Assembly: GCA_017549285.1 (NCBI GenBank)
Contig: JAFYVE010000049.1
Location: 1 to 47,913, forward strand
Direction of reading: 5' to 3'
DNA: 47,913 nucleotides
DNA from: Clostridia bacterium
GTDB lineage: Bacteria; Bacillota; Clostridia; Oscillospirales; Acutalibacteraceae
The notes under the pieces: model-generated
What the model saw: the letters and a program-made list of their open reading frames with translations, nothing else
Databases searched by the model: none
What the model was told of the DNA's origin: nothing
Made by a program: the position numbers and the translations under genes
Part shown: piece by piece, positions 2,925 to 42,178 of the stretch
How positions within the stretch are numbered: position 1 is the stretch's first letter
Layout of the letters: every line of letters starts with the position of its first letter

Positions 2925-3064
2925 TATCAGAATTTATCGGGATGTTTGAACAAACTAATCGTAGGGGCTGCCATTGGCAGTCCGTATGGAAATACTTGCT
3001 GTAACGGACGCCCGATGGGCGCCCCTACGTTGTGATTTTCAAATTTAATGTCACCGATAAATTA
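2925..3064. repeat. REP/BIME-like palindromic element, copy A (short form)
   Basis: The core at 2961-3028 starts GTAGGGGC and ends GCCCCTAC. Each 24-base arm (2961-2984 and 3005-3028) is itself a hairpin: CTGCCA T TGGCAG on the left and CGCCC GAT GGGCG on the right. The spacer is only 20 bases. Outer flanks AATTTATCGG (2931-2940) and CCGATAAATT (3055-3064) are perfect inverted repeats. The element fills the gap between two convergent genes. It is a short relative of the ~170-base elements further on. Confidence 0.75.
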
Positions 3065-32473: not shown

Positions 32474-32733
32474 GTAGGGGCGCCCATCGGGCGTCCGCAC
32501 TCAGGAAAAACAAATTTTGTAGGGACCGATGCCTACATCGGTCCGATTGCGTAATGTAATGGAGCAATAACGATTGAAAATCGTTCTATTGCAACAATCT
32601 TAATAAATCAATTTGTTCGTTATGCGGAAATCAAAGATTTCCGATTTGTCTTTGACAAATGCGGACCGATGTGGGCATCGGTCCCTACATAGTTACATAT
32701 TTATCAAAGCGGACGCCCGATGGGCGCCCCTAC
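32474..32733. repeat. REP/BIME-like element, copy D outer (GTAGGGGC type), interrupted
   Basis: The left arm GTAGGGGCGCCC-ATCGGGCGTCCG (32474-32497) and its exact inverse at 32710-32733 bracket the complete inner element at 32519-32688. Each arm has an internal GCCC...GGGC hairpin. The right arm is identical to the right arm of copy A, so these belong to one subfamily. Flanks AATTTGTCA (32441-32449) and TCGACAAATTCTGATTTAT (32744-32762) echo the outer flanks of the other copies. The 484-base gap between thyX and the giant gene holds only these elements, the thyX promoter and a terminator. Confidence 0.8.
32519..32688. repeat. REP/BIME-like palindromic element, copy D inner (GTAGGGAC type)
   Basis: 170 bases in the same orientation as copies C and E, nearly identical to them. 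The left arm GTAGGGACCGATG-CCTA-CATCGGTCC differs from copy C only in its loop. It sits inside the outer GTAGGGGC-type element, showing that insertion happened in two steps. Confidence 0.88.
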
Positions 32734-32796: not shown

Positions 32797-32824
32797 AAAA
32801 AAAACCCGGGACTTTCGTCCCGGG
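32797..32824 (-). terminator. Terminator of the giant secreted protein gene
   Basis: On the minus strand CCCGGGAC / GTCCCGGG with loop GAAA is followed by eight T, 19 bases after the stop codon. A very strong terminator. Confidence 0.95.
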
Positions 32825-32842
32825 AAAATGATTATTCATTTA

Positions 32843-35800
32843 TTATGCCATGCCGAAGAGCTTTCTGAAGAAATCGCCGATTCTCTGGAAGAACTGAACG
32901 ATTCTGTCCCAGAATGTGAGAACGCCTTCATCTGCTACACCGTCTGAATCAACGATACCGTCGAAGTAAGTGTCAAGAATCTTTCTGAGAACCTTAACGC
33001 CGGAGCTTGTAACGGGATCACCGAATGTTTCAAAGAAATTGAATACGAACTTCCATGTCTTGTTGAATGAAGTGTATTCTTCTTCAAAGTTATCGATACC
33101 TGTGTGGATACCGTAGAAGATGTAGTAAAGAGTTGCCATAGCACCGCTTGTAACGGGCTCTGTTGCAAGTGCAGTAAGAACAAACTTGATAAGTGCGCTT
33201 GCTGAACTTGTAGCATCATCACTCTGTGAATTATTTGCAATAAGAGCAATAATTGCATCTGCATTGTTGCCTTCTGCAAGGAAGTCAATGAGAAGACGGA
33301 GAACGATAGTAACCATATCTGATTCCTGCCATTCGCCGGCATATTCCATTGTGTAGTATGTTTCGCCGTTTGCTGACTGATATGAAACAACCTTACCTGT
33401 TGTAAGCTCTGCAACGAAGTCGTGGAGAACAAGAGTTACATCCATGCCTGTTGATTCTTCGATACCGTCAACAGCAAGACCGATGAGGTATTCAAAGTTG
33501 TATGTTGCAAGGTCAACACCGAGGAGTGTCATAAGGTCAGGAGCACCGAGGAGGGGCTCAAGAGCCATAAGAACAGTATCAACTGAGTTGATGATGTTCT
33601 TGACAGCTGTATCAAGACCGTTTGAGTTGATGAAATAGATGATAGCGGGAAGCATATCAAAGATTTCATTTACGGGATCAGCGAGAATTGCATCTACTCT
33701 GTCAAGGAGAGGATTAAGAATTGCGCCGACCTTTGCTTCATCGTCAAGAGCCTTGAATTCAGCGGGAGTCATCATTGTGCATCCGAGTGCCTCGAAGAGA
33801 GGAACAAGACCGTATGCATAACCTTCTGAACCGTAGATTGTAAGAGCATCTCTGCCTGTACCGTCTATTGAATAGAAGAGTTCAATGTTTTCACCGCAAA
33901 GGAGAAGATCAAGAACGGGAACGATGGGAGCGATCATCTGCTTGAGAGCTGCAAGGAATGAATCTCTGTCACCGTCAACAACTTCTACTGTCATTGTTTC
34001 CCATGCACCGATTGATGTACCGAGAGCATTGTCAACAAGAGTGATTGCCATCTTGCCGATTTCTGAGTATTCACCGAAGAGGTCGGGAAGACTCTTGAGA
34101 ACATCGAGAAGTGCATCTGCAGTTGCCTGAGTATAGAGTTCTGTTGTAAGAAGTGTGTTGATAAGAGTATCAGCGTTTCTTACATTTACACCGTTGATAT
34201 TAAGACCGAGGATTGAAATGATATCGTTTACGAAATCGGGAAGATTTTCAGCGATATATTCAGCCTTGTCTTCTGTCCATACGTTATTGTAAGCAACTTC
34301 AAACTTCTTTGAAGTTTCAAGACCTGTGAATGTCTTGTCTGTGTCAGCATATTCTGTAAGAATCCATGAGAATTCCTGCATTGCCTTAACACCCTGGATA
34401 CCGAGAACAGCGATGATGCCGTTGTAAACATCTTCACCGAGCCATGATGAAAGCTGTGCATCATTTCTTTCGTCAACGAATGCGTCAACAACGAATGAGA
34501 TGAGACATGTGATCATGTCTTTTCTTGTTTCTTCTTCGCTGTAAGTCATACGGTAAGCAAGCTTGCCGTTAGCTGATTCGAAGGGAACAACCTGACCGAT
34601 GAAGAATGTTGCAAGGAATTTCTGAGTATATTCGGGGAAGTAGAGACCTACGAGATCTTCGAGAAGATCGAAGATAGCATAGAAATCAAAGTTTGTGATG
34701 TCGATACCTTCAATGAGAGTAGCGAAATCAACGTTTACACCCATGGGCTTGAGAGCATCAAGGATGAAGTTTACGGGCTGAAGGAGGTTATTTACAACAA
34801 CCTTGAGACCGTCTGCATTGATGAAGTAAATAACGTTGGGAAGCTTTTCAAGCATTACGCTGAGAGTTCCGTCACCGTTAAGGTCACCGCAGATTTCAGC
34901 AAGCCAGTCTGTAACAGCTGTGAAGATATCTCTTACAGCCATTTCCATATCAAGTTCACCGTCAACATAGAATGCTGATGCGGGCTTGATGCCTGAAGCT
35001 GTGCCTTCGTAGTTCATTGTAGCTGAAAGACCTTCAAGGAGAGGTACGAATGCTTCATTGTAGCCTTCGCCGCCCTTGATTGTTACAAGAACTTCGTTAG
35101 TTGTACCGTTGAAGAATGTGTAATCTTCACCGAAGAGGAGCCATGCGAGAAGTCTGTATGCGGGTCTGAGAGCCTCAACAAAGCCTTCTACGAATGCTGT
35201 TCTCTTTTCTGCATTTGTTGCAGCTGAATCGATGCCCCAGTCCTTAACACAAGTTACAACTTTTTCACCGTTTTCATCTGTTGTGATTTCACAATAGTCA
35301 TCGAACCATGCAGCAAGGTCTTCTGCACCGAGGAGGACGCCTGCCTTCTTGATGATATCTTCGTAATCAACAAGGAGTTCAACTACCATTTCGATAAGTG
35401 AATTGAGGATGTCATCCTTATAAAGAGCACCTGAAATAGCTGCATCGAGAAGCTGACCGAGAGATGAACCGTCATTTCTTGCGATTGTTGTGATTTCTTT
35501 TACAAGAGTATCAAGAATAACATCAATGTATTCAGCAGAAGCTTCATTCCAGTTATTCTGGTACTGTGTATAGATTTCATAAGCGTCGCCTGTACGCTCG
35601 GGAAGATTGTTGTTGTAGAGCTGAGAAGCAGCATCTTCACCTTCATACATATATGCCCAGTTCATATCTCTGTAAACAAAAGCACTTGAAGCACCCTTGA
35701 TAAGGTTATAAACTGCATAATATGTTTCTTCACCGAGAAGACCTGAGAAGAGGTCTGCGTTGAGGTTGAATGCATCGAGAGCGATGCTGAGTACGATTGT

Positions 35801-38800
35801 GAGAACGTCACCTTCTGCACCTTCAACGTCAAGTCTGTAAGCCTTTCTGCCGTTTGCTGATGTGAACTCTGCAAGTTTACCTACATAGAGGTTCTTGATG
35901 ATTTCAACCATTTCAGCTGAAAGGACGAAGCCTGCGTCAGCAGCGAAACCAAGGAGAGTATCCATTGAGATTTTAGAAATGTTCAGACCGATTGTGGGCT
36001 CAAGGAGACCGCCGATTGAAACTGCTGAACCGTCTTCGCTGATAACGGGAGAAAGTTTTTCAATGATTGCATCAACGGGAGCAAGAAGATTGTTTACACT
36101 TGTCTTGATACCGTCTGCATTGATGAAATAGATAATGTTGGGAAGAAGGTCAAAAATACCTTCAACAGGATTTGCTGCAATTTCATCTACAAGAGCAAAT
36201 ACTGAATTAAGAAGAGCTTCTACTGCATCGGGAACATTGTACTTGCCTGTTTCTGCATTGTAGAAATCAGAAGCGGGAGCAAGAGTACAGCCGAGTGCTT
36301 CGAAGATGGGAGCGAGACCGTAAGCATAGCCTTCGCCGCCGTTGAGAGCGATAACATCGTTGAATACATATTTGCCTTCAGCGTCTGTTTCGCTGCCTGT
36401 GAAGAATGTGAAGTCTTCACCGAAGAATACCCATGCGAGGAGTTCGTTTGCGGGAGCAAGAACTTCCTTGAGAGCTGCGATGAATGCTGTCTTCTTGTCA
36501 GCTGCTTCATCAACGCCCCAATCCTTTGTGCATACATACTCGCCTGTTGCTTCGTCGATATCGCAGAATGTGAACCATGTAGCGATATCTGTATCAAGAA
36601 CAACGTCAACGAGTTCAAAGAGTGATGCATCAAGACCTGCAATAAGATTTACGATAAGTTCAACAACTGTGTTGAGGATTTCGTCTGAGTAAACGTTATC
36701 TTCAAGAAGTCCGTTGAGAAGAGTGCCGATTGTTTCGTTTTCTTCAAGAACCATGGGAAGAACGAGTTCAAGCACTTCGTCAAGAGCTGAGTAAACTGCG
36801 TCAGCTGTTTCCTTATCCCAGTCAGTTGTATAGTCAAGGTATACGATTGACTGTGCGGGAAGGATGAGTGAGAACTCATCAACTGATGTGAACATATAGC
36901 CCCAGTCGGGATCTGCATATTCAACATCAACACCCTTGATAACTTCTGCGATCATGCCGTACATACCGGCAATTTCTTCTTTACCTGTCATTTCAGCAAC
37001 AAGTTCAAAGATAACGTCGCCGTTAGCCTTGCCGTCTGCTGCGGGATAGCTGAGACAATCAAGAAGAGCTGTTACAAGAAGAGTTACTGTATCTGCTGCA
37101 TCAACAGTTGACTTATAAACTGTGCCGACTGCTGTGTTTTCGATCTTTTCAATACCTGAGCAGAAGCCCTTGATACCGATATTTACAAGACCGCTGTTGT
37201 AGAGGTCTGTGCCGAGGAAACCGTCAACAAGCTTGATGATTTCTGAGAATGTAAGATTGTTGATGTCGATTGAATAGTAAACGAAGTCAGGATCATCATT
37301 CTGATATACACCATTGATTACATAAGGAAGAATTGCATCAATGTTGAGAGCCTTATAGTTAAGAAGCTCTGAAACGAGAATTGAAAGAACGCCGTTTACA
37401 TCTACATCAATGATGGGTCTTACTGTATCAACAAGCACAAGAACGGGCATAAGAAGGTTGTGAAGGAATGTTGAAAGACCGTTTGATTCGATGAAGTAGA
37501 AGAGGTCGGGGATAATTTCAACGAGCTGTTCAATCATATCATCTGATGATGTGAGAGCATAGAACCAGTCAAGAACTGCTGTGAGCATAGCTGTGAAGCT
37601 GCCCATTGCATCTGCATTGAAATCTGCCTGAGTGGGAAGATTGTCAACACCGAGCATTTCAAAGAGAAGACCGAATGTTGTATCATATGTTTCATAACCC
37701 TTGAGAGTTACAACATTTTCAAATGCTGATACATCTTCGCCTGCGAACAGGAACTCGATAAGAAGTGAAGCTTCACCGAGAAGTCTTGAAAGGATATTTA
37801 CGAATGTATATCCGTCACCGTCGTTAAGAGGCATCTTGTTGAAGAACCAGGAAATTGTTCCGTCTTCGTTTGCAATACCTTCAACGCCGAAGTTGTTTAC
37901 ATAATGTCTGTCATCAGGCATTATGATTTCAGCATCTTCTGCCCATGTTGATGCGGGGAAGAGATAACCGAATGCTGTGTACCATGATTCAATGTTGATA
38001 CCAACCTGGTTAGCAACAACGTCATTGATAACTGCACTGGGTGAATCACCGAGACCGCCGAGCATCTTGACAAGAGCTGTGATGTTTGCATTTGTAAAGA
38101 GTCCGTTTACTGTTTCAGCAAGGAAATCACCGATATCAGTCATATCAGAGCCGACGAGTGAAAGAACTGTCTTTACAAGTGCGTCAAGATTATCCATAAG
38201 ATATTCTGACTTTTCACGTGTCCAGTCGTTACCATAGTTAAGGTAAACGATTGACATGTTGTTTGCGCCTTCAATACCATTATAATTGTATGCACTTTCA
38301 GCCCAGTTCATTTCAGCAAGGTCATATGTAACGGGGTTGAGAATTTCAATTATAGCAGCGAGAGCGCCTCTGGGGTTATTTGTAAGCTGTGAAATAACCT
38401 TATCGAGAACAGAAGCGATCATGGGATCCATATCTGAACCGAGGAGTGATGTGAGAAGGCTGTTGCCTTCTGCATCGGGAGTAAGAGCCTGAACAAGGTA
38501 ATCAATAAGCCAGTACATAAGGTCTGCCTTATTAGCATTAAGGTCTACTCTGCCGCCGGCATTGTATGACCAGTCAGAACAGAAGATGATATCCTGCTGT
38601 CTGATGGGAGGAAGTGTGATTGCGGGACTTGCTGCTGCGGGAGCTGCATCGCAACCTGCATCACAACCTGTTGCATCTGAACCTGTGAGTGAACCGAGAG
38701 CGAATTTGAGAATTTCATTGAAGTCTGAAATTTCAAAGCCGAGCATATCGTAAAGGTTGATTTCGTCTGCAAGGTTAAGGTCTACGGGGAATTCGATTGT

Positions 38801-41800
38801 ACCGGCAAGTGAACCTTCAAGAAGGCCGAGGATTGAGTTACCCAGACCTGAACCCGCATAAACATCAAGTTCATGAAGGTTAAGATTCAGATGAATCTTA
38901 AGACTGTTGATAATTTCCTGAACAGAGTCCATTGAAACGAAATAAACAAGGTTCGGGAGAATATCAAGAATACTTGTAAGGGGTGATTTGAGAATGTCTT
39001 TTACTCTCTTGAGAAGAGTACCGATAAGAGCATCTGCAATATCATAACCTGAAGCATCCTGTGAAACTGTGGGAATCTTTTCAACGCCGAGAACCTCGAA
39101 GAGAGGAACGAAGATTGTACTCCATGCGTTAAGAGGATCGATAGTAATTCTCATACCGCCACGGATGAATGTTTTGTTAGCATTCAGGAAACCGAGTGCT
39201 GTAATTTTATCAGAATAAGCAATAGCAGCGTTTGATGATTCGCCTTCAAAAGGTTTGTCTGTAAGAACAGCCTGAAGAAGAGGAAGAATAGAATCAAGGA
39301 TACAAGCCATTACTTCGATGAATGAATCTTCATCGTATACGCCCCATTCAAATGCAAGAGCTTTTGTTTCGTCAACTACGGGAGTTTCGGGATCATCAGC
39401 ACAAACGAGCTGAGTCCAGTCTCTGCCTGCAGCCTTGAGAGCTTCATAAATGGGTGAACCTACACCGTAAGATGCGGGGTTTGAAAGAAGGAGTGAATCA
39501 GCAAGAGATGCGGGATAGATATAAAGACCAAGGTCTGCAAACACCTGCATGAAGTTCTTCTGATGACCTTCGGGGTTGCCGGGTGCATATGTTGTATCAA
39601 GATAAAGAGCAAGTTTACCAGATGCAGCATCGATAAGTGAACCGATGTCAAGCCAGGGTACACCGTTTGCATCAACTTCAGCACCGTCCATTGTACCGAG
39701 AGCACCGACAAGCTCTGCTTCGATAAGTTCACAGATCATCGGGAAAATTGCACTGACGAGAGTGTTCATCATATCGTCTGTGTAAAGCATATCTTCAATC
39801 ATAAGAAGAAGATATTCTTCAAGACCGATGTATTCTTCCTCTTCATTTGTGAAGCCGAGGAGAGCACCGAAGTCACGTGAAATGATGAAATTGTCAAGTC
39901 TTGCAACTGTGTTTTCCATCTTGTCTGCAGTTACATAGTAGTTATCTTCTGCACCGCTTCTTGCAAGGTCAGAGGGATAACCTATCTGGATTTCGCCGCC
40001 TTCTTCGTCATCAATGATGACCTGATCGCCTGCATAACGGACACCGAAATAACCGTTTTCATCAGCAAATGTAAAGCCTTCGTTGAAGTGAGCCTTACCG
40101 TCTGATGTAGAGAATGCATGGTACTTATCAAGAAGAGTCTGTACCTGTGCATACTTGTTTACATAAGCACTTGAAAGACCGAGATTATTATCTATTACAT
40201 AATTATAAAGGTCATAGTCAAAGTATGTAAGAGTTGATTTGATTGATGCGAAGTTATTGAAGTTAACTTCTGTTATACCCTTGTATGCTTCAACAGTATC
40301 AAGCTGAGCTTCAGTTCTTGCGATAAGGTTTGCCTTAACAAGTTCCTTACCTGTTGATTTTACAGAATCAATAAGAGTCTGAAGGAGGTAATCCGTGCCT
40401 TCGTAATTGATTGTGAAAATCTTATCGGCAATTGTGCCGCCCCACTTGCTCAGAATATTGTTATATGATGTTCTGAGTTCTGTGAGCTTTGTATCGAGTT
40501 CCTGATGAAGAGCGATAGCTGTATCGTTATCAAGATCAACGATCATATTTGTGAAGATGATGGGCATAAAGTATGAATAGTATGTTTCATACTCCATCTT
40601 GAGTCCACGTACTTCTACAACTTCATCAAGCTTTGTATTGAATGCTGCCCAGTCTGCTTCATAAGCAGTTGTCCAGTAATTTCTGTAATATGCTTTTGAA
40701 GTGTAAGTTGCAAGGACTTCTTCGTAACCTTCAACTTTCTGAACAAGACCGAGAACTTCTGCATCGGCAGGAGTTTCAATATCTTCTTTATTGAGAAGAG
40801 TATTGTAATCTTCATATGTCTTGAGCATTGAAGCTGCAAGTTCTTCAAGTCTCTGTTCTGTCATTACATCATAAAGAGTTGCCATGTAAGAATCAGCAGT
40901 TGATTTAAGAGCAACAGCTGAATCGTATTCATCAGCATAACCTGCATCGTTAACAATGTAATTAACGATTTCAGCATCCATGTTGAATACAACATTGTAA
41001 GCTGTGTTGACCTTATTATAAAGGCTGCTCATTTCTGCATAGCTTTCCTCATTATATTCAGAGCCGATATAATTATTGAGGACATCGATGTTGTGCATAC
41101 CTGCTACAACACGGTAAGCAAAATAGCAATCTTCCATGAATGCAACGATCTTATCATAACCGAGACCGAAATGATCGATAACTTCTTTTGAGAAATTATC
41201 TTTCATTACATTATAATAAGAATCAGCACTCTTATAAAGAGTTTCAATCTCATCAATAGATAAGCCGAGCATTGATTCTCTTGTGTTTACATAGAGTTCT
41301 TCGTTGAAGAACTTTTCAAGAGCAAGAAGGTTCTTCTTTGCTGTTGTGTTCTTTACAACCTGTCTTGTGGGCTTACCTGTCATATAGTTATATGCAGATG
41401 TTGAGATTGTGGGTGTGTAATAATTTGTTGTTACAGCATCACAACCTTCACCTGTTGTTTCACTTCTTGAATCAACTTTTGATACAGTTGCACTGTAAGT
41501 TGTAACATGGTTGTAAGTGAAAGTTGCACTTGTAAGGAATGATGAAGGGATTTCATCAATTGTGCTGAACTTAGTAAGGTACTTTGTCATATCAACCTGA
41601 ACAAAAGCCTTCTTTGTTGTAACATCACTTAATGAAATACCAGCAGCGTACATCGAGCCGTTTGATGCGATAGGATATGAACCTGTTACATCTGTACCCT
41701 GAGTGTACTCTGTTGTTGATTCGCCGAGTTTTGTTGACTTTGTGCCGGGCTTTTCTGAAGAGTAAATAGTTGCGCCGTCGGGATCAAGAACGTTCTTTAC

Positions 41801-42178
41801 AAGTCTGTCAGCAGCAGTTGCATTCGCATACTGTGATTTGAATTCTGCTGTGAAGTAATCGTAAAGAGCTTTTGTTGAGTTACCCTTTGATTCGGCGTCT
41901 CTACCTTCTCTGTAGGTCTTTACGGCATAGTCGAAGATAGCATCGGCAGCAGCAAGAGCTGAACCGTCATCGGCTGTGTAATTCCATTCGTTAGCAGCAC
42001 TGCTTAATGTGAAGCCGTTTGCTGTTGCAGCATTGACAAGGTCAATAACCTGCGCAGACGAATACTTGGAATCACCGGGAGCCGCAGATGCAACTACACC
42101 TGTAAGACCGACTGAGCATGCACTGAATAACATAAGTAATGCTAAAAAGATGCTCAGCGTTTTCTTTGCGAGTTTCAT
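32843..42178 (-). CDS. Giant secreted repeat protein of unknown function (3111 residues)
   Basis: I do not recognise a family. A signal peptide (KK at 5-6, hydrophobic core 8-30) ends in VVASA/AP near residue 32; an FSAC at 18-21 leaves a weak lipobox alternative. Residues 33 to about 840 are a unique, mostly helical region. Five diverged repeats of roughly 400-480 residues follow, each containing a [PI]xxxYFI[NE][AS][ND]G motif (near 1078, 1560, 2017, 2451, 2848). Most are preceded by an [FA]GED-type block and EGYxxxFxPLFExLG. The repeats are rich in Leu, Asp and Glu and low in Lys. A CDAGCDAAPAAASP insert lies near 1180. The end is an aromatic amphipathic helix (FWDRIVQFFQRIGDFFRKLFG). No LPXTG, SLH or dockerin is visible. 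AGGAAG precedes the ATG. Confidence 0.85.
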   Translation of the reverse strand: MKLAKKTLSIFLALLMLFSACSVGLTGVVASAAPGDSKYSSAQVIDLVNAATANGFTLSSAANEWNYTADDGSALAAADAIFDYAVKTYREGRDAESKGNSTKALYDYFTAEFKSQYANATAADRLVKNVLDPDGATIYSSEKPGTKSTKLGESTTEYTQGTDVTGSYPIASNGSMYAAGISLSDVTTKKAFVQVDMTKYLTKFSTIDEIPSSFLTSATFTYNHVTTYSATVSKVDSRSETTGEGCDAVTTNYYTPTISTSAYNYMTGKPTRQVVKNTTAKKNLLALEKFFNEELYVNTRESMLGLSIDEIETLYKSADSYYNVMKDNFSKEVIDHFGLGYDKIVAFMEDCYFAYRVVAGMHNIDVLNNYIGSEYNEESYAEMSSLYNKVNTAYNVVFNMDAEIVNYIVNDAGYADEYDSAVALKSTADSYMATLYDVMTEQRLEELAASMLKTYEDYNTLLNKEDIETPADAEVLGLVQKVEGYEEVLATYTSKAYYRNYWTTAYEADWAAFNTKLDEVVEVRGLKMEYETYYSYFMPIIFTNMIVDLDNDTAIALHQELDTKLTELRTSYNNILSKWGGTIADKIFTINYEGTDYLLQTLIDSVKSTGKELVKANLIARTEAQLDTVEAYKGITEVNFNNFASIKSTLTYFDYDLYNYVIDNNLGLSSAYVNKYAQVQTLLDKYHAFSTSDGKAHFNEGFTFADENGYFGVRYAGDQVIIDDEEGGEIQIGYPSDLARSGAEDNYYVTADKMENTVARLDNFIISRDFGALLGFTNEEEEYIGLEEYLLLMIEDMLYTDDMMNTLVSAIFPMICELIEAELVGALGTMDGAEVDANGVPWLDIGSLIDAASGKLALYLDTTYAPGNPEGHQKNFMQVFADLGLYIYPASLADSLLLSNPASYGVGSPIYEALKAAGRDWTQLVCADDPETPVVDETKALAFEWGVYDEDSFIEVMACILDSILPLLQAVLTDKPFEGESSNAAIAYSDKITALGFLNANKTFIRGGMRITIDPLNAWSTIFVPLFEVLGVEKIPTVSQDASGYDIADALIGTLLKRVKDILKSPLTSILDILPNLVYFVSMDSVQEIINSLKIHLNLNLHELDVYAGSGLGNSILGLLEGSLAGTIEFPVDLNLADEINLYDMLGFEISDFNEILKFALGSLTGSDATGCDAGCDAAPAAASPAITLPPIRQQDIIFCSDWSYNAGGRVDLNANKADLMYWLIDYLVQALTPDAEGNSLLTSLLGSDMDPMIASVLDKVISQLTNNPRGALAAIIEILNPVTYDLAEMNWAESAYNYNGIEGANNMSIVYLNYGNDWTREKSEYLMDNLDALVKTVLSLVGSDMTDIGDFLAETVNGLFTNANITALVKMLGGLGDSPSAVINDVVANQVGINIESWYTAFGYLFPASTWAEDAEIIMPDDRHYVNNFGVEGIANEDGTISWFFNKMPLNDGDGYTFVNILSRLLGEASLLIEFLFAGEDVSAFENVVTLKGYETYDTTFGLLFEMLGVDNLPTQADFNADAMGSFTAMLTAVLDWFYALTSSDDMIEQLVEIIPDLFYFIESNGLSTFLHNLLMPVLVLVDTVRPIIDVDVNGVLSILVSELLNYKALNIDAILPYVINGVYQNDDPDFVYYSIDINNLTFSEIIKLVDGFLGTDLYNSGLVNIGIKGFCSGIEKIENTAVGTVYKSTVDAADTVTLLVTALLDCLSYPAADGKANGDVIFELVAEMTGKEEIAGMYGMIAEVIKGVDVEYADPDWGYMFTSVDEFSLILPAQSIVYLDYTTDWDKETADAVYSALDEVLELVLPMVLEENETIGTLLNGLLEDNVYSDEILNTVVELIVNLIAGLDASLFELVDVVLDTDIATWFTFCDIDEATGEYVCTKDWGVDEAADKKTAFIAALKEVLAPANELLAWVFFGEDFTFFTGSETDAEGKYVFNDVIALNGGEGYAYGLAPIFEALGCTLAPASDFYNAETGKYNVPDAVEALLNSVFALVDEIAANPVEGIFDLLPNIIYFINADGIKTSVNNLLAPVDAIIEKLSPVISEDGSAVSIGGLLEPTIGLNISKISMDTLLGFAADAGFVLSAEMVEIIKNLYVGKLAEFTSANGRKAYRLDVEGAEGDVLTIVLSIALDAFNLNADLFSGLLGEETYYAVYNLIKGASSAFVYRDMNWAYMYEGEDAASQLYNNNLPERTGDAYEIYTQYQNNWNEASAEYIDVILDTLVKEITTIARNDGSSLGQLLDAAISGALYKDDILNSLIEMVVELLVDYEDIIKKAGVLLGAEDLAAWFDDYCEITTDENGEKVVTCVKDWGIDSAATNAEKRTAFVEGFVEALRPAYRLLAWLLFGEDYTFFNGTTNEVLVTIKGGEGYNEAFVPLLEGLSATMNYEGTASGIKPASAFYVDGELDMEMAVRDIFTAVTDWLAEICGDLNGDGTLSVMLEKLPNVIYFINADGLKVVVNNLLQPVNFILDALKPMGVNVDFATLIEGIDITNFDFYAIFDLLEDLVGLYFPEYTQKFLATFFIGQVVPFESANGKLAYRMTYSEEETRKDMITCLISFVVDAFVDERNDAQLSSWLGEDVYNGIIAVLGIQGVKAMQEFSWILTEYADTDKTFTGLETSKKFEVAYNNVWTEDKAEYIAENLPDFVNDIISILGLNINGVNVRNADTLINTLLTTELYTQATADALLDVLKSLPDLFGEYSEIGKMAITLVDNALGTSIGAWETMTVEVVDGDRDSFLAALKQMIAPIVPVLDLLLCGENIELFYSIDGTGRDALTIYGSEGYAYGLVPLFEALGCTMMTPAEFKALDDEAKVGAILNPLLDRVDAILADPVNEIFDMLPAIIYFINSNGLDTAVKNIINSVDTVLMALEPLLGAPDLMTLLGVDLATYNFEYLIGLAVDGIEESTGMDVTLVLHDFVAELTTGKVVSYQSANGETYYTMEYAGEWQESDMVTIVLRLLIDFLAEGNNADAIIALIANNSQSDDATSSASALIKFVLTALATEPVTSGAMATLYYIFYGIHTGIDNFEEEYTSFNKTWKFVFNFFETFGDPVTSSGVKVLRKILDTYFDGIVDSDGVADEGVLTFWDRIVQFFQRIGDFFRKLFGMA

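What the first reader, a model, noticed from the sequence alone, without database searches (positions are those of the whole stretch)
32843..42178. 3111-residue secreted protein with no recognisable family
It takes nearly a fifth of the window. It has a clear signal peptide, a unique ~800-residue N-terminal part, five large diverged repeats and an aromatic amphipathic C-terminal helix, but no known surface anchor or enzyme motif. It has its own strong terminator and a divergent two-component system. It could be a surface fibre, adhesin or S-layer-like structural protein, or a lipid- or polymer-binding scaffold.
Basis: partly seen in the sequence, partly recalled or inferred. Interest (0 to 1): 0.8.

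Follow-up and report, generated by a model that had tools for sequence, protein, structure and literature searches.

The report
Giant surface protein with tail helix
A relative of gut Clostridia makes a giant exported protein of helical repeats whose short Phe-rich tail also ends many unrelated exported proteins of the same lineage, which hints at an undescribed way of holding proteins on the cell surface.

Summary
The 3111-aa ORF is real and on the minus strand: signal peptide, ~770-aa N-terminal part, five ~430-aa modules, aromatic amphipathic C-terminal helix. No Pfam, NCBIfam or PDB-sequence family was found. It is conserved: two full-length orthologs are 60-62% identical, all 11 genus genomes searched have a match, and ten compared proteins have 4-6 modules. 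The "divergent two-component system" is not conserved beside it.

The unexpected part is the tail helix. A 31-position profile places it at the C-termini of 18 proteins of this genome. Of the 16 besides P0001 and its C29 paralog, 15 have signal-like N-termini (one is cut by a contig end), and 13 match diverse Pfam families (GH2, CotH, hydrolases, LRR, phosphoesterase). All 11 genus genomes have 4-17 matches; 12 of 390 other genomes of the class have one each; the reversed profile finds 1 in 60 genomes. Of 41 sampled matches elsewhere, 33 are C-terminal and 8 N-terminal.

Best reading: a modular helical surface protein retained at the cell by a lineage-wide helix tag. Retention is inferred. No structure could be predicted; what the modules bind is unknown.

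The parts
32843..42178 (-). 3111-aa secreted modular protein (P0001)
   Evidence: ORF and translation; full-length orthologs L009, L010; codon-position divergence
42071..42178 (-). signal peptide region, about residues 1-36; A-x-A type site near residue 33 and a conserved Cys at residue 21
   Evidence: translation; comparison of orthologs; boundaries by eye
39869..42070 (-). N-terminal part, about residues 37-770, no family found
   Evidence: no second match in own genome for residues 1-725; 51 and 66% identical in two orthologs
38255..39871 (-). module 1 (residues 770-1308)
   Evidence: rotated repeat profile; own clade in repeat tree
36848..38263 (-). module 2 (residues 1306-1777)
35549..36859 (-). 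module 3 (residues 1774-2210)
34298..35590 (-). module 4 (residues 2197-2627)
33044..34318 (-). module 5 (residues 2621-3045)
32849..32938 (-). C-terminal aromatic amphipathic helix tag (heptads FFxxIxx), last ~30 residues
   Evidence: profile matches, reversed control, position check
32805..32824 (-). intrinsic terminator-like stem, followed by T8
   Evidence: sequence

Best explanation
The gene encodes an exported, largely alpha-helical, modular surface protein. Shown by sequence: a signal-like N-terminus, a conserved N-terminal part, a row of ~430-residue modules that goes back to about four modules with the inner type multiplied, and a tail helix of three heptads (FF-x-K-I-x-x) shared by many unrelated exported proteins of the same lineage. 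Inferred: Sec exports the chain, the signal peptide is removed, and the tail helix keeps the protein at the cell envelope, most likely by lying in the outer face of the cytoplasmic membrane with its broad Phe/Ile face in the lipid and basic residues at the head groups. The modules would form a long stalk through and beyond the wall that presents the N-terminal part. On the other proteins the same helix would hold enzymes and LRR proteins at the cell.
For: Export and conservation. Modules and ancestry; module 1, module 2, the inner type and the last module each form a clade that holds copies from the genus and from G013 of another genus. Tag generality: the first profile (A2, whose only own-genome rows were P0001 and the C29 paralog) found 13 further proteins of the genome with the helix at the C-terminus. 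The second (A5) gave 27 matches at E<=10: 18 C-terminal, 3 N-terminal, 6 in frames of 65 aa or less. 13 of 16 tagged proteins have Pfam matches at E<=0.01, in unrelated families. Controls: reversed profile 1 match in 60 genomes; forward profile matches in 20 of the same 60; 12 of 390 other class genomes with one match each. Of 41 matches sampled in other genomes, 33 end within 20 aa of the stop and 8 lie within 60 codons of the frame start; none is internal. Helix physics for 26 tails: best-window hydrophobic moment 0.57-0.83, net charge there 0 to +4, best 19-residue Kyte-Doolittle mean at most 1.25, too low for a membrane-spanning helix. Of the 23 genomes from other families of the order, 12 have 4 or more SLH matches and none of these 12 has a tag match.
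Against: No localisation, lipid-binding or structural data. The heptad pattern (I at a, F at d and e) would also suit helix-helix assembly; the weak PDB matches of the tail profile are mostly coiled-coil entries, plus LL-37. Sortase and LPXTG-type genes exist in the genome, so the tag is not the only anchor. 12 of the 26 family members outside the genus have no tag, SLH or LPXTG-type match at all, and the SLH contrast follows family lines, so it may be phylogeny, not function. Three of the 18 own-genome tags are weak (E 0.003, 0.004 and 0.86), and 15 of the 26 rows of A5 come from this genome. For pestivirus Erns the authors found that retention is not set by the helix's lipid affinity (abstract), so an amphipathic helix alone does not prove retention. 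A Cys in the signal peptide could mean lipid anchoring at the N-terminus instead.
Confidence: 0.55

Rival explanations
1. The tail helix is an assembly tag: three-heptad helices of different secreted proteins (or of one partner) pack into helical bundles and so build a multi-protein surface complex, in the manner of a docking domain, with the giant protein as backbone.
For: Regular heptad with I at a and F at d and e (occupancy inflated by template fitting); of five PDB entries matched at E<=10, four carry coiled-coil or designed-fibre names (E 0.015 to 5.2; that they are designed is recalled from the names) and one is LL-37; tagged proteins include enzymes.
Against: Heptad positions b (6 and 13 of the template) are hydrophobic in 54 and 76% of 51 tags, giving a face wider than a coiled coil needs; no partner with complementary helices was seen, but none was searched for.
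Confidence: 0.25
2. The helix is a C-terminal signal removed or exchanged by a dedicated processing enzyme (like PEP-CTERM, GlyGly-CTERM or MYXO-CTERM), not a lasting anchor.
For: Many proteins, one lineage, extreme C-terminal position, often an acidic or Pro/Asp-rich stretch before it.
Against: No transmembrane segment and no shared motif before it; the same helix stands at the N-terminus in 8 of 41 sampled matches, which a C-terminal processing signal would not do. A partner enzyme was not searched for.
Confidence: 0.12
3. The giant protein is a lipoprotein: the conserved Cys21 of the signal peptide is lipidated, and the tail helix has another role.
For: Cys21 in all 9 clear genus orthologs compared and Cys20 in the G013 ortholog; 7 of these 10 fit the lipobox pattern (pattern recalled from PROSITE).
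Against: 3 of 10 have V or T before the Cys; an A-x-A type site follows; the 6035-aa relative of G010 has no Cys there; none of the 15 other tagged proteins of the genome with a visible N-terminus fits the pattern.
Confidence: 0.15
4. The helix is only a by-product of Phe-rich composition in these genomes, with no common function.
For: Amphipathic Phe-rich stretches are simple in composition; isolated matches occur in 12 of 390 other genomes of the class.
Against: The reversed profile of identical composition gives 1 match in 60 genomes; 41 of 41 sampled matches sit at protein ends.
Confidence: 0.05

Closest known systems
In-plane C-terminal amphipathic membrane anchors (E. coli DD-carboxypeptidases such as PBP6b; pestivirus Erns)
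   Same: Exported protein with a terminal amphipathic helix. PBP6b has a C-terminal amphipathic helix that was left off for structural work (one passage of PMC4916385 seen; that it anchors is recalled). The Erns anchor lies in plane and prefers negatively charged lipids (abstract of PMC4536213 seen).
   Different: There the helix belongs to one protein or family; here one helix type is shared by many unrelated families and may stand at either end. No lipid binding has been shown here.
CTERM sorting tags (PEP-CTERM, GlyGly-CTERM, MYXO-CTERM) and LPXTG
   Same: Short C-terminal tag on many otherwise unrelated secreted proteins of one lineage (beginnings of abstracts in the listing; LPXTG recalled).
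   Different: Those have a motif, a transmembrane segment and a basic tail and a processing enzyme (partly recalled); this one has no transmembrane segment and no motif before it.
Phenol-soluble modulins, LL-37, PorH-type amphipathic peptides
   Same: Amphipathic helix; weak matches to models or entries.
   Different: Free small peptides or porins, not end tags of large proteins; best E 0.0036 (PorH, NCBIfam), 0.06 (PSMalpha, Pfam), 0.88 (LL-37).
Large repeat surface adhesins
   Same: Signal peptide, unique N-terminal part, variable number of large repeats, anchor-like C-terminus (recalled).
   Different: Modules are ~430 residues, helix-periodic, and match no Pfam family.

Membership tests
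Sortase-anchored (LPXTG) surface protein | C-terminal LPxTG-like motif, transmembrane segment, basic tail (Pfam PF00746) | tested here: not met
   P0001 has no Pfam match at E<=1; its C-terminus is an amphipathic helix. One distant relative (L053, G012) does end in VDTGD, a hydrophobic stretch and KKK.
S-layer (SLH) protein | SLH domains (PF00395) | tested here: not met
   No match in P0001; the whole genome has 1 SLH match.
CTERM-type processed sorting signal | signature motif + transmembrane helix + basic tail | tested here: not met
   Best 19-residue hydropathy mean at most 1.25 in 26 tails; no common motif before the helix by eye.
CTERM-type processed sorting signal | partner processing enzyme in the same genomes | not tested
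   no search made
CTERM-type processed sorting signal | shared by many unrelated secreted proteins at the extreme C-terminus | tested here: met
   18 proteins in own genome; 33 of 41 sampled elsewhere, the other 8 N-terminal.
In-plane amphipathic membrane anchor | terminal amphipathic helix, too polar to span the membrane | tested here: met
   Best-window moment 0.57-0.83; heptad occupancy.
In-plane amphipathic membrane anchor | binds lipid bilayers and keeps the protein with the membrane | not testable with these tools
   needs a vesicle assay or cell fractionation
Bacterial lipoprotein | lipobox with small residue before Cys | tested here: inconclusive
   Recalled pattern met in 7 of 10 orthologs; an A-x-A site follows.
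Any Pfam/NCBIfam family over the modules | match above cut-off | tested here: not met
   0 families at E<=1 in both libraries; PDB profile search: 4uos, a designed helical bundle, E 0.46, and 8eov, E 2.7.

The most novel reading that the evidence does not exclude
A lineage of gut Clostridia holds its secreted enzymes, LRR proteins and giant modular proteins at the cell surface with one common three-heptad aromatic helix placed at either end of the protein: a surface-retention system without sortase motif, SLH domain or transmembrane segment. The protein of this window is one of three tagged proteins of more than 3100 residues in its genome and has tagged relatives of 6035 and 9406 residues.
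Probability: 0.45. Interest if true: 0.78.

Novelty: new variant of a known kind. Interest (0 to 1): 0.62.

Why it matters
If the tag retains proteins at the cell, many unannotated secreted proteins of this lineage can be assigned to the cell surface from sequence alone, and the helix becomes a portable display tag testable in a laboratory Gram-positive. It would help to explain how genomes with few SLH and LPXTG matches keep enzymes at the cell. The giant protein is also a clear example of module multiplication in a bacterial surface protein (about 4 ancestral modules, inner type multiplied).

Tried and rejected
Known family over the length: not found. Tie to the divergent two-component system: 13 window neighbours were compared by tblastn (E<=1e-10) with 18 loci, 9 of them ortholog loci with flanks of unequal length. 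Four matches came out, none next to the giant gene: a response regulator (40%) and kinase (23%) pair in L010, 3.3 to 5.4 kb away; a 51% match of the 44391 ORF and a partial AAA ATPase match (33%) in the paralog locus L056. Phage origin: two weak PHROG hits at E 0.015 and 0.052; one viral-contig scan confirmed no relative. Tandem-pair alignment for folding (A3) was poor, 1613 columns, and was replaced by single modules (A4). Self-BLAST of the whole protein gave nothing or only the self hit and one script crashed; the repeats came from 300-residue pieces. Structure and fold search could not be run. Literature: eight searches; in the titles and abstract beginnings listed (2 to 15 per search, out of up to 5579 papers) I saw no such tag in Clostridia. 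Subscription papers are mostly not held, so this is no proof of absence.

Limits and rows dropped: in the repeat tree only matches with E<1e-8 were used and the G010 and G002 relatives were left out. 15 of the 26 rows of A5 are own-genome tags, so the own-genome count with A5 is partly circular; A2 is the less circular count. The 41 sampled matches were taken in E-value order from the list, skipping G000, matches that already had loci and one 20-codon frame at a contig edge; 1 of the 41 (L167) was in the training set and others are orthologs of training rows. In the class search at most 20 candidates per genome were scored, so its counts are lower bounds; all were scored.

Full report
OBSERVATION. 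The ORF 32843-42178 is on the minus strand and encodes 3111 residues. It begins with a signal-peptide-like segment, and its last 30 residues form an aromatic amphipathic helix. hmmscan against Pfam-A and NCBIfam finds no family even at E<=1. phmmer against PDB sequences finds none at E<=1. A profile of the modules finds two PDB entries at E<=10, a designed helical bundle (4uos, E 0.46) and 8eov (E 2.7).

IT IS A CONSERVED GENE. They are 60.5% and 62.3% identical over more than 3000 codons, and third positions are the most changed. With the first 1108 residues as query, 15 of 60 related genomes match: all 11 of the genus (own included; G002 only in a fragment) and 4 of 26 others in the family; none of 23 genomes from other families of the order does. 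Frames of the clear orthologs run from 2470 to 3597 aa; more distant giants have 6035 and 9406 residues. The 9406-residue frame starts with a signal-like segment and ends in an aromatic helix of the same kind.

MODULES. Five repeats were found. A profile in a shifted register fits all five, to residue 3045. In a tree of 49 modules from ten proteins, module 1, module 2, the inner type and the last module each form a clade with copies from the genus and from G013 of another genus. The ancestral protein therefore had about four modules, and the inner type multiplied to give 5 (window, L009, L010) or 6 (G001, G003, G008). Averaged hydrophobicity of the 15-row module alignment has alpha-type periodicity in 26% of 434 windows, against 5% by construction in shuffles, and beta-type in 3%. 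A profile of the module finds 1 weak match (E 2.5e-4) in 390 other genomes of the class.

THE TAIL HELIX IS A SHARED TAG. Paralogs with other N-termini end in the same helix. A profile of 14 such tails (A2) against the own genome gave 23 matches at E<=10: 16 at the C-termini of 15 proteins, 2 at N-termini and 5 in frames of 64 aa or less. A second profile (A5, 26 tails) gave 27: 18 C-terminal, 3 N-terminal, 6 in frames of 65 aa or less; three of those six were judged by frame length alone, and three of the 18 are weak (E 0.003, 0.004, 0.86). The 16 ORFs besides P0001 and the C29 paralog were read: 15 have signal-peptide-like N-termini by eye, and the other is cut by a contig end. Pfam finds something at E<=0.01 in 13 of the 16: GH2, CotH (2), InlB-type repeats (2), alpha/beta hydrolases (2), phosphodiester glycosidase, BspA-type LRR (2), metallophosphoesterase, a 3117-aa protein with metallophosphoesterase, Big_2, VWA and pilin-tip Ig domains, and a 2013-aa protein with a VWA match below the cut-off. 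So the helix goes with export, not with one function.

CONTROLS. In 60 relatives A5 has matches (E<=0.001) in 20: all 11 of the genus with 4 to 17 each, G013 7, G018 10, G023 11, G025 6, and five genomes with one; of those five singles three are C-terminal, one internal, one in an unlikely frame. The reversed profile, with the same composition, has 1 match in the same 60. In the class sample 12 of 390 other genomes have one match each (at most 20 candidates scored per genome); of these 12, four end within 20 aa of a stop in a frame over 100 aa. Of 41 matches fetched from other genomes, 33 end within 20 aa of a stop and 8 stand within 60 codons of the frame start (six by the script's narrower rule, two more by eye: L183 at a start codon, L184 perhaps behind a signal peptide, of which only part was printed); none is internal. 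No Pfam or NCBIfam model covers the helix; the best chance-like hits are phiKZ_IP (6 of 26 tails, best E 0.026), PorH (6 of 26, best E 0.0036) and PSM models.

WHAT THE HELIX LOOKS LIKE. Fitted to a template, which inflates occupancy, positions 1, 2, 5, 8, 9, 12, 15, 16, 19 and 20 are 92-100% hydrophobic in 51 tags; positions 4 and 11 are K/R in half or more and position 14 is D/E in half. The best-window moment is 0.57-0.83, net charge there 0 to +4, and hydropathy is too low for a membrane-spanning segment. This suits an in-plane membrane anchor (PBP6b passage and Erns abstract seen) and also a helical bundle. That the helix also occurs at N-termini argues against a C-terminal processing signal.

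OTHER ANCHORS. The genome has two sortase-like genes near a protein that ends in LPQTGD and a hydrophobic stretch, 2 LPXTG-type matches and 1 SLH match. In the order, 12 of 23 genomes from other families have 4 or more SLH matches, and none of these 12 has a tag match; in the tag's family 1 of 37 has 4 or more. This contrast is confounded with phylogeny, and 12 of 26 family members outside the genus have no match of any of the three kinds. A Cys at position 21 of the signal peptide in 9 of 9 clear genus orthologs leaves lipidation open.

CONCLUSION. The protein is a lineage-specific, modular, helix-periodic exported protein. Its tail is a shared helix tag, not described in the libraries and paper listings searched, that most likely retains proteins at the cell envelope. 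Shown: gene, modules, ancestry, tag distribution and position. Inferred: export, retention, stalk shape, membrane as the binding partner.

Noticed in passing
L115 971-2986, L202, L009 C-terminus, L111, L114 and others: Cys/His clusters (CxCxCH or CxxCGxxH by eye) stand directly before the tail helix in some tags; a CxC or CxxC pair is near the helix in 3 of 18 own-genome and 8 of 33 other C-terminal tags. In L009, L115 and L202 a second Cys pair follows the helix. Possibly a small metal-binding cap.
   Followed up: partly
L068, L183, L187, L191, L194, L201, L203: A more hydrophobic version of the helix stands right after the likely start codon of alpha/beta-hydrolase-like and GH16-like proteins (functions judged by eye) that lack an ordinary signal peptide.
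   Followed up: partly
L051 + L052 + L209 (G013:C13): A 9406-residue open frame with signal-like start, many diverged copies of the same module and an aromatic tail helix.
   Followed up: partly
L066 (G000:C44:41514-41567): A 46-codon open frame that is little more than the helix, near a secreted phosphoesterase-like gene (by eye); a small peptide gene or chance.
   Followed up: no
window 3004-3028, 32474-32498, 32709-32733: A 25-base GC-rich partly palindromic repeat, 3 copies with 0-1 mismatches, none expected by chance; two lie in the gap downstream of the giant gene's terminator.
   Followed up: no
L053 6656-10972 (G012): A distant relative with the same kind of module ends in VDTGD, a hydrophobic stretch and KKK instead of the helix: one anchor apparently swapped for another.
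   Followed up: no
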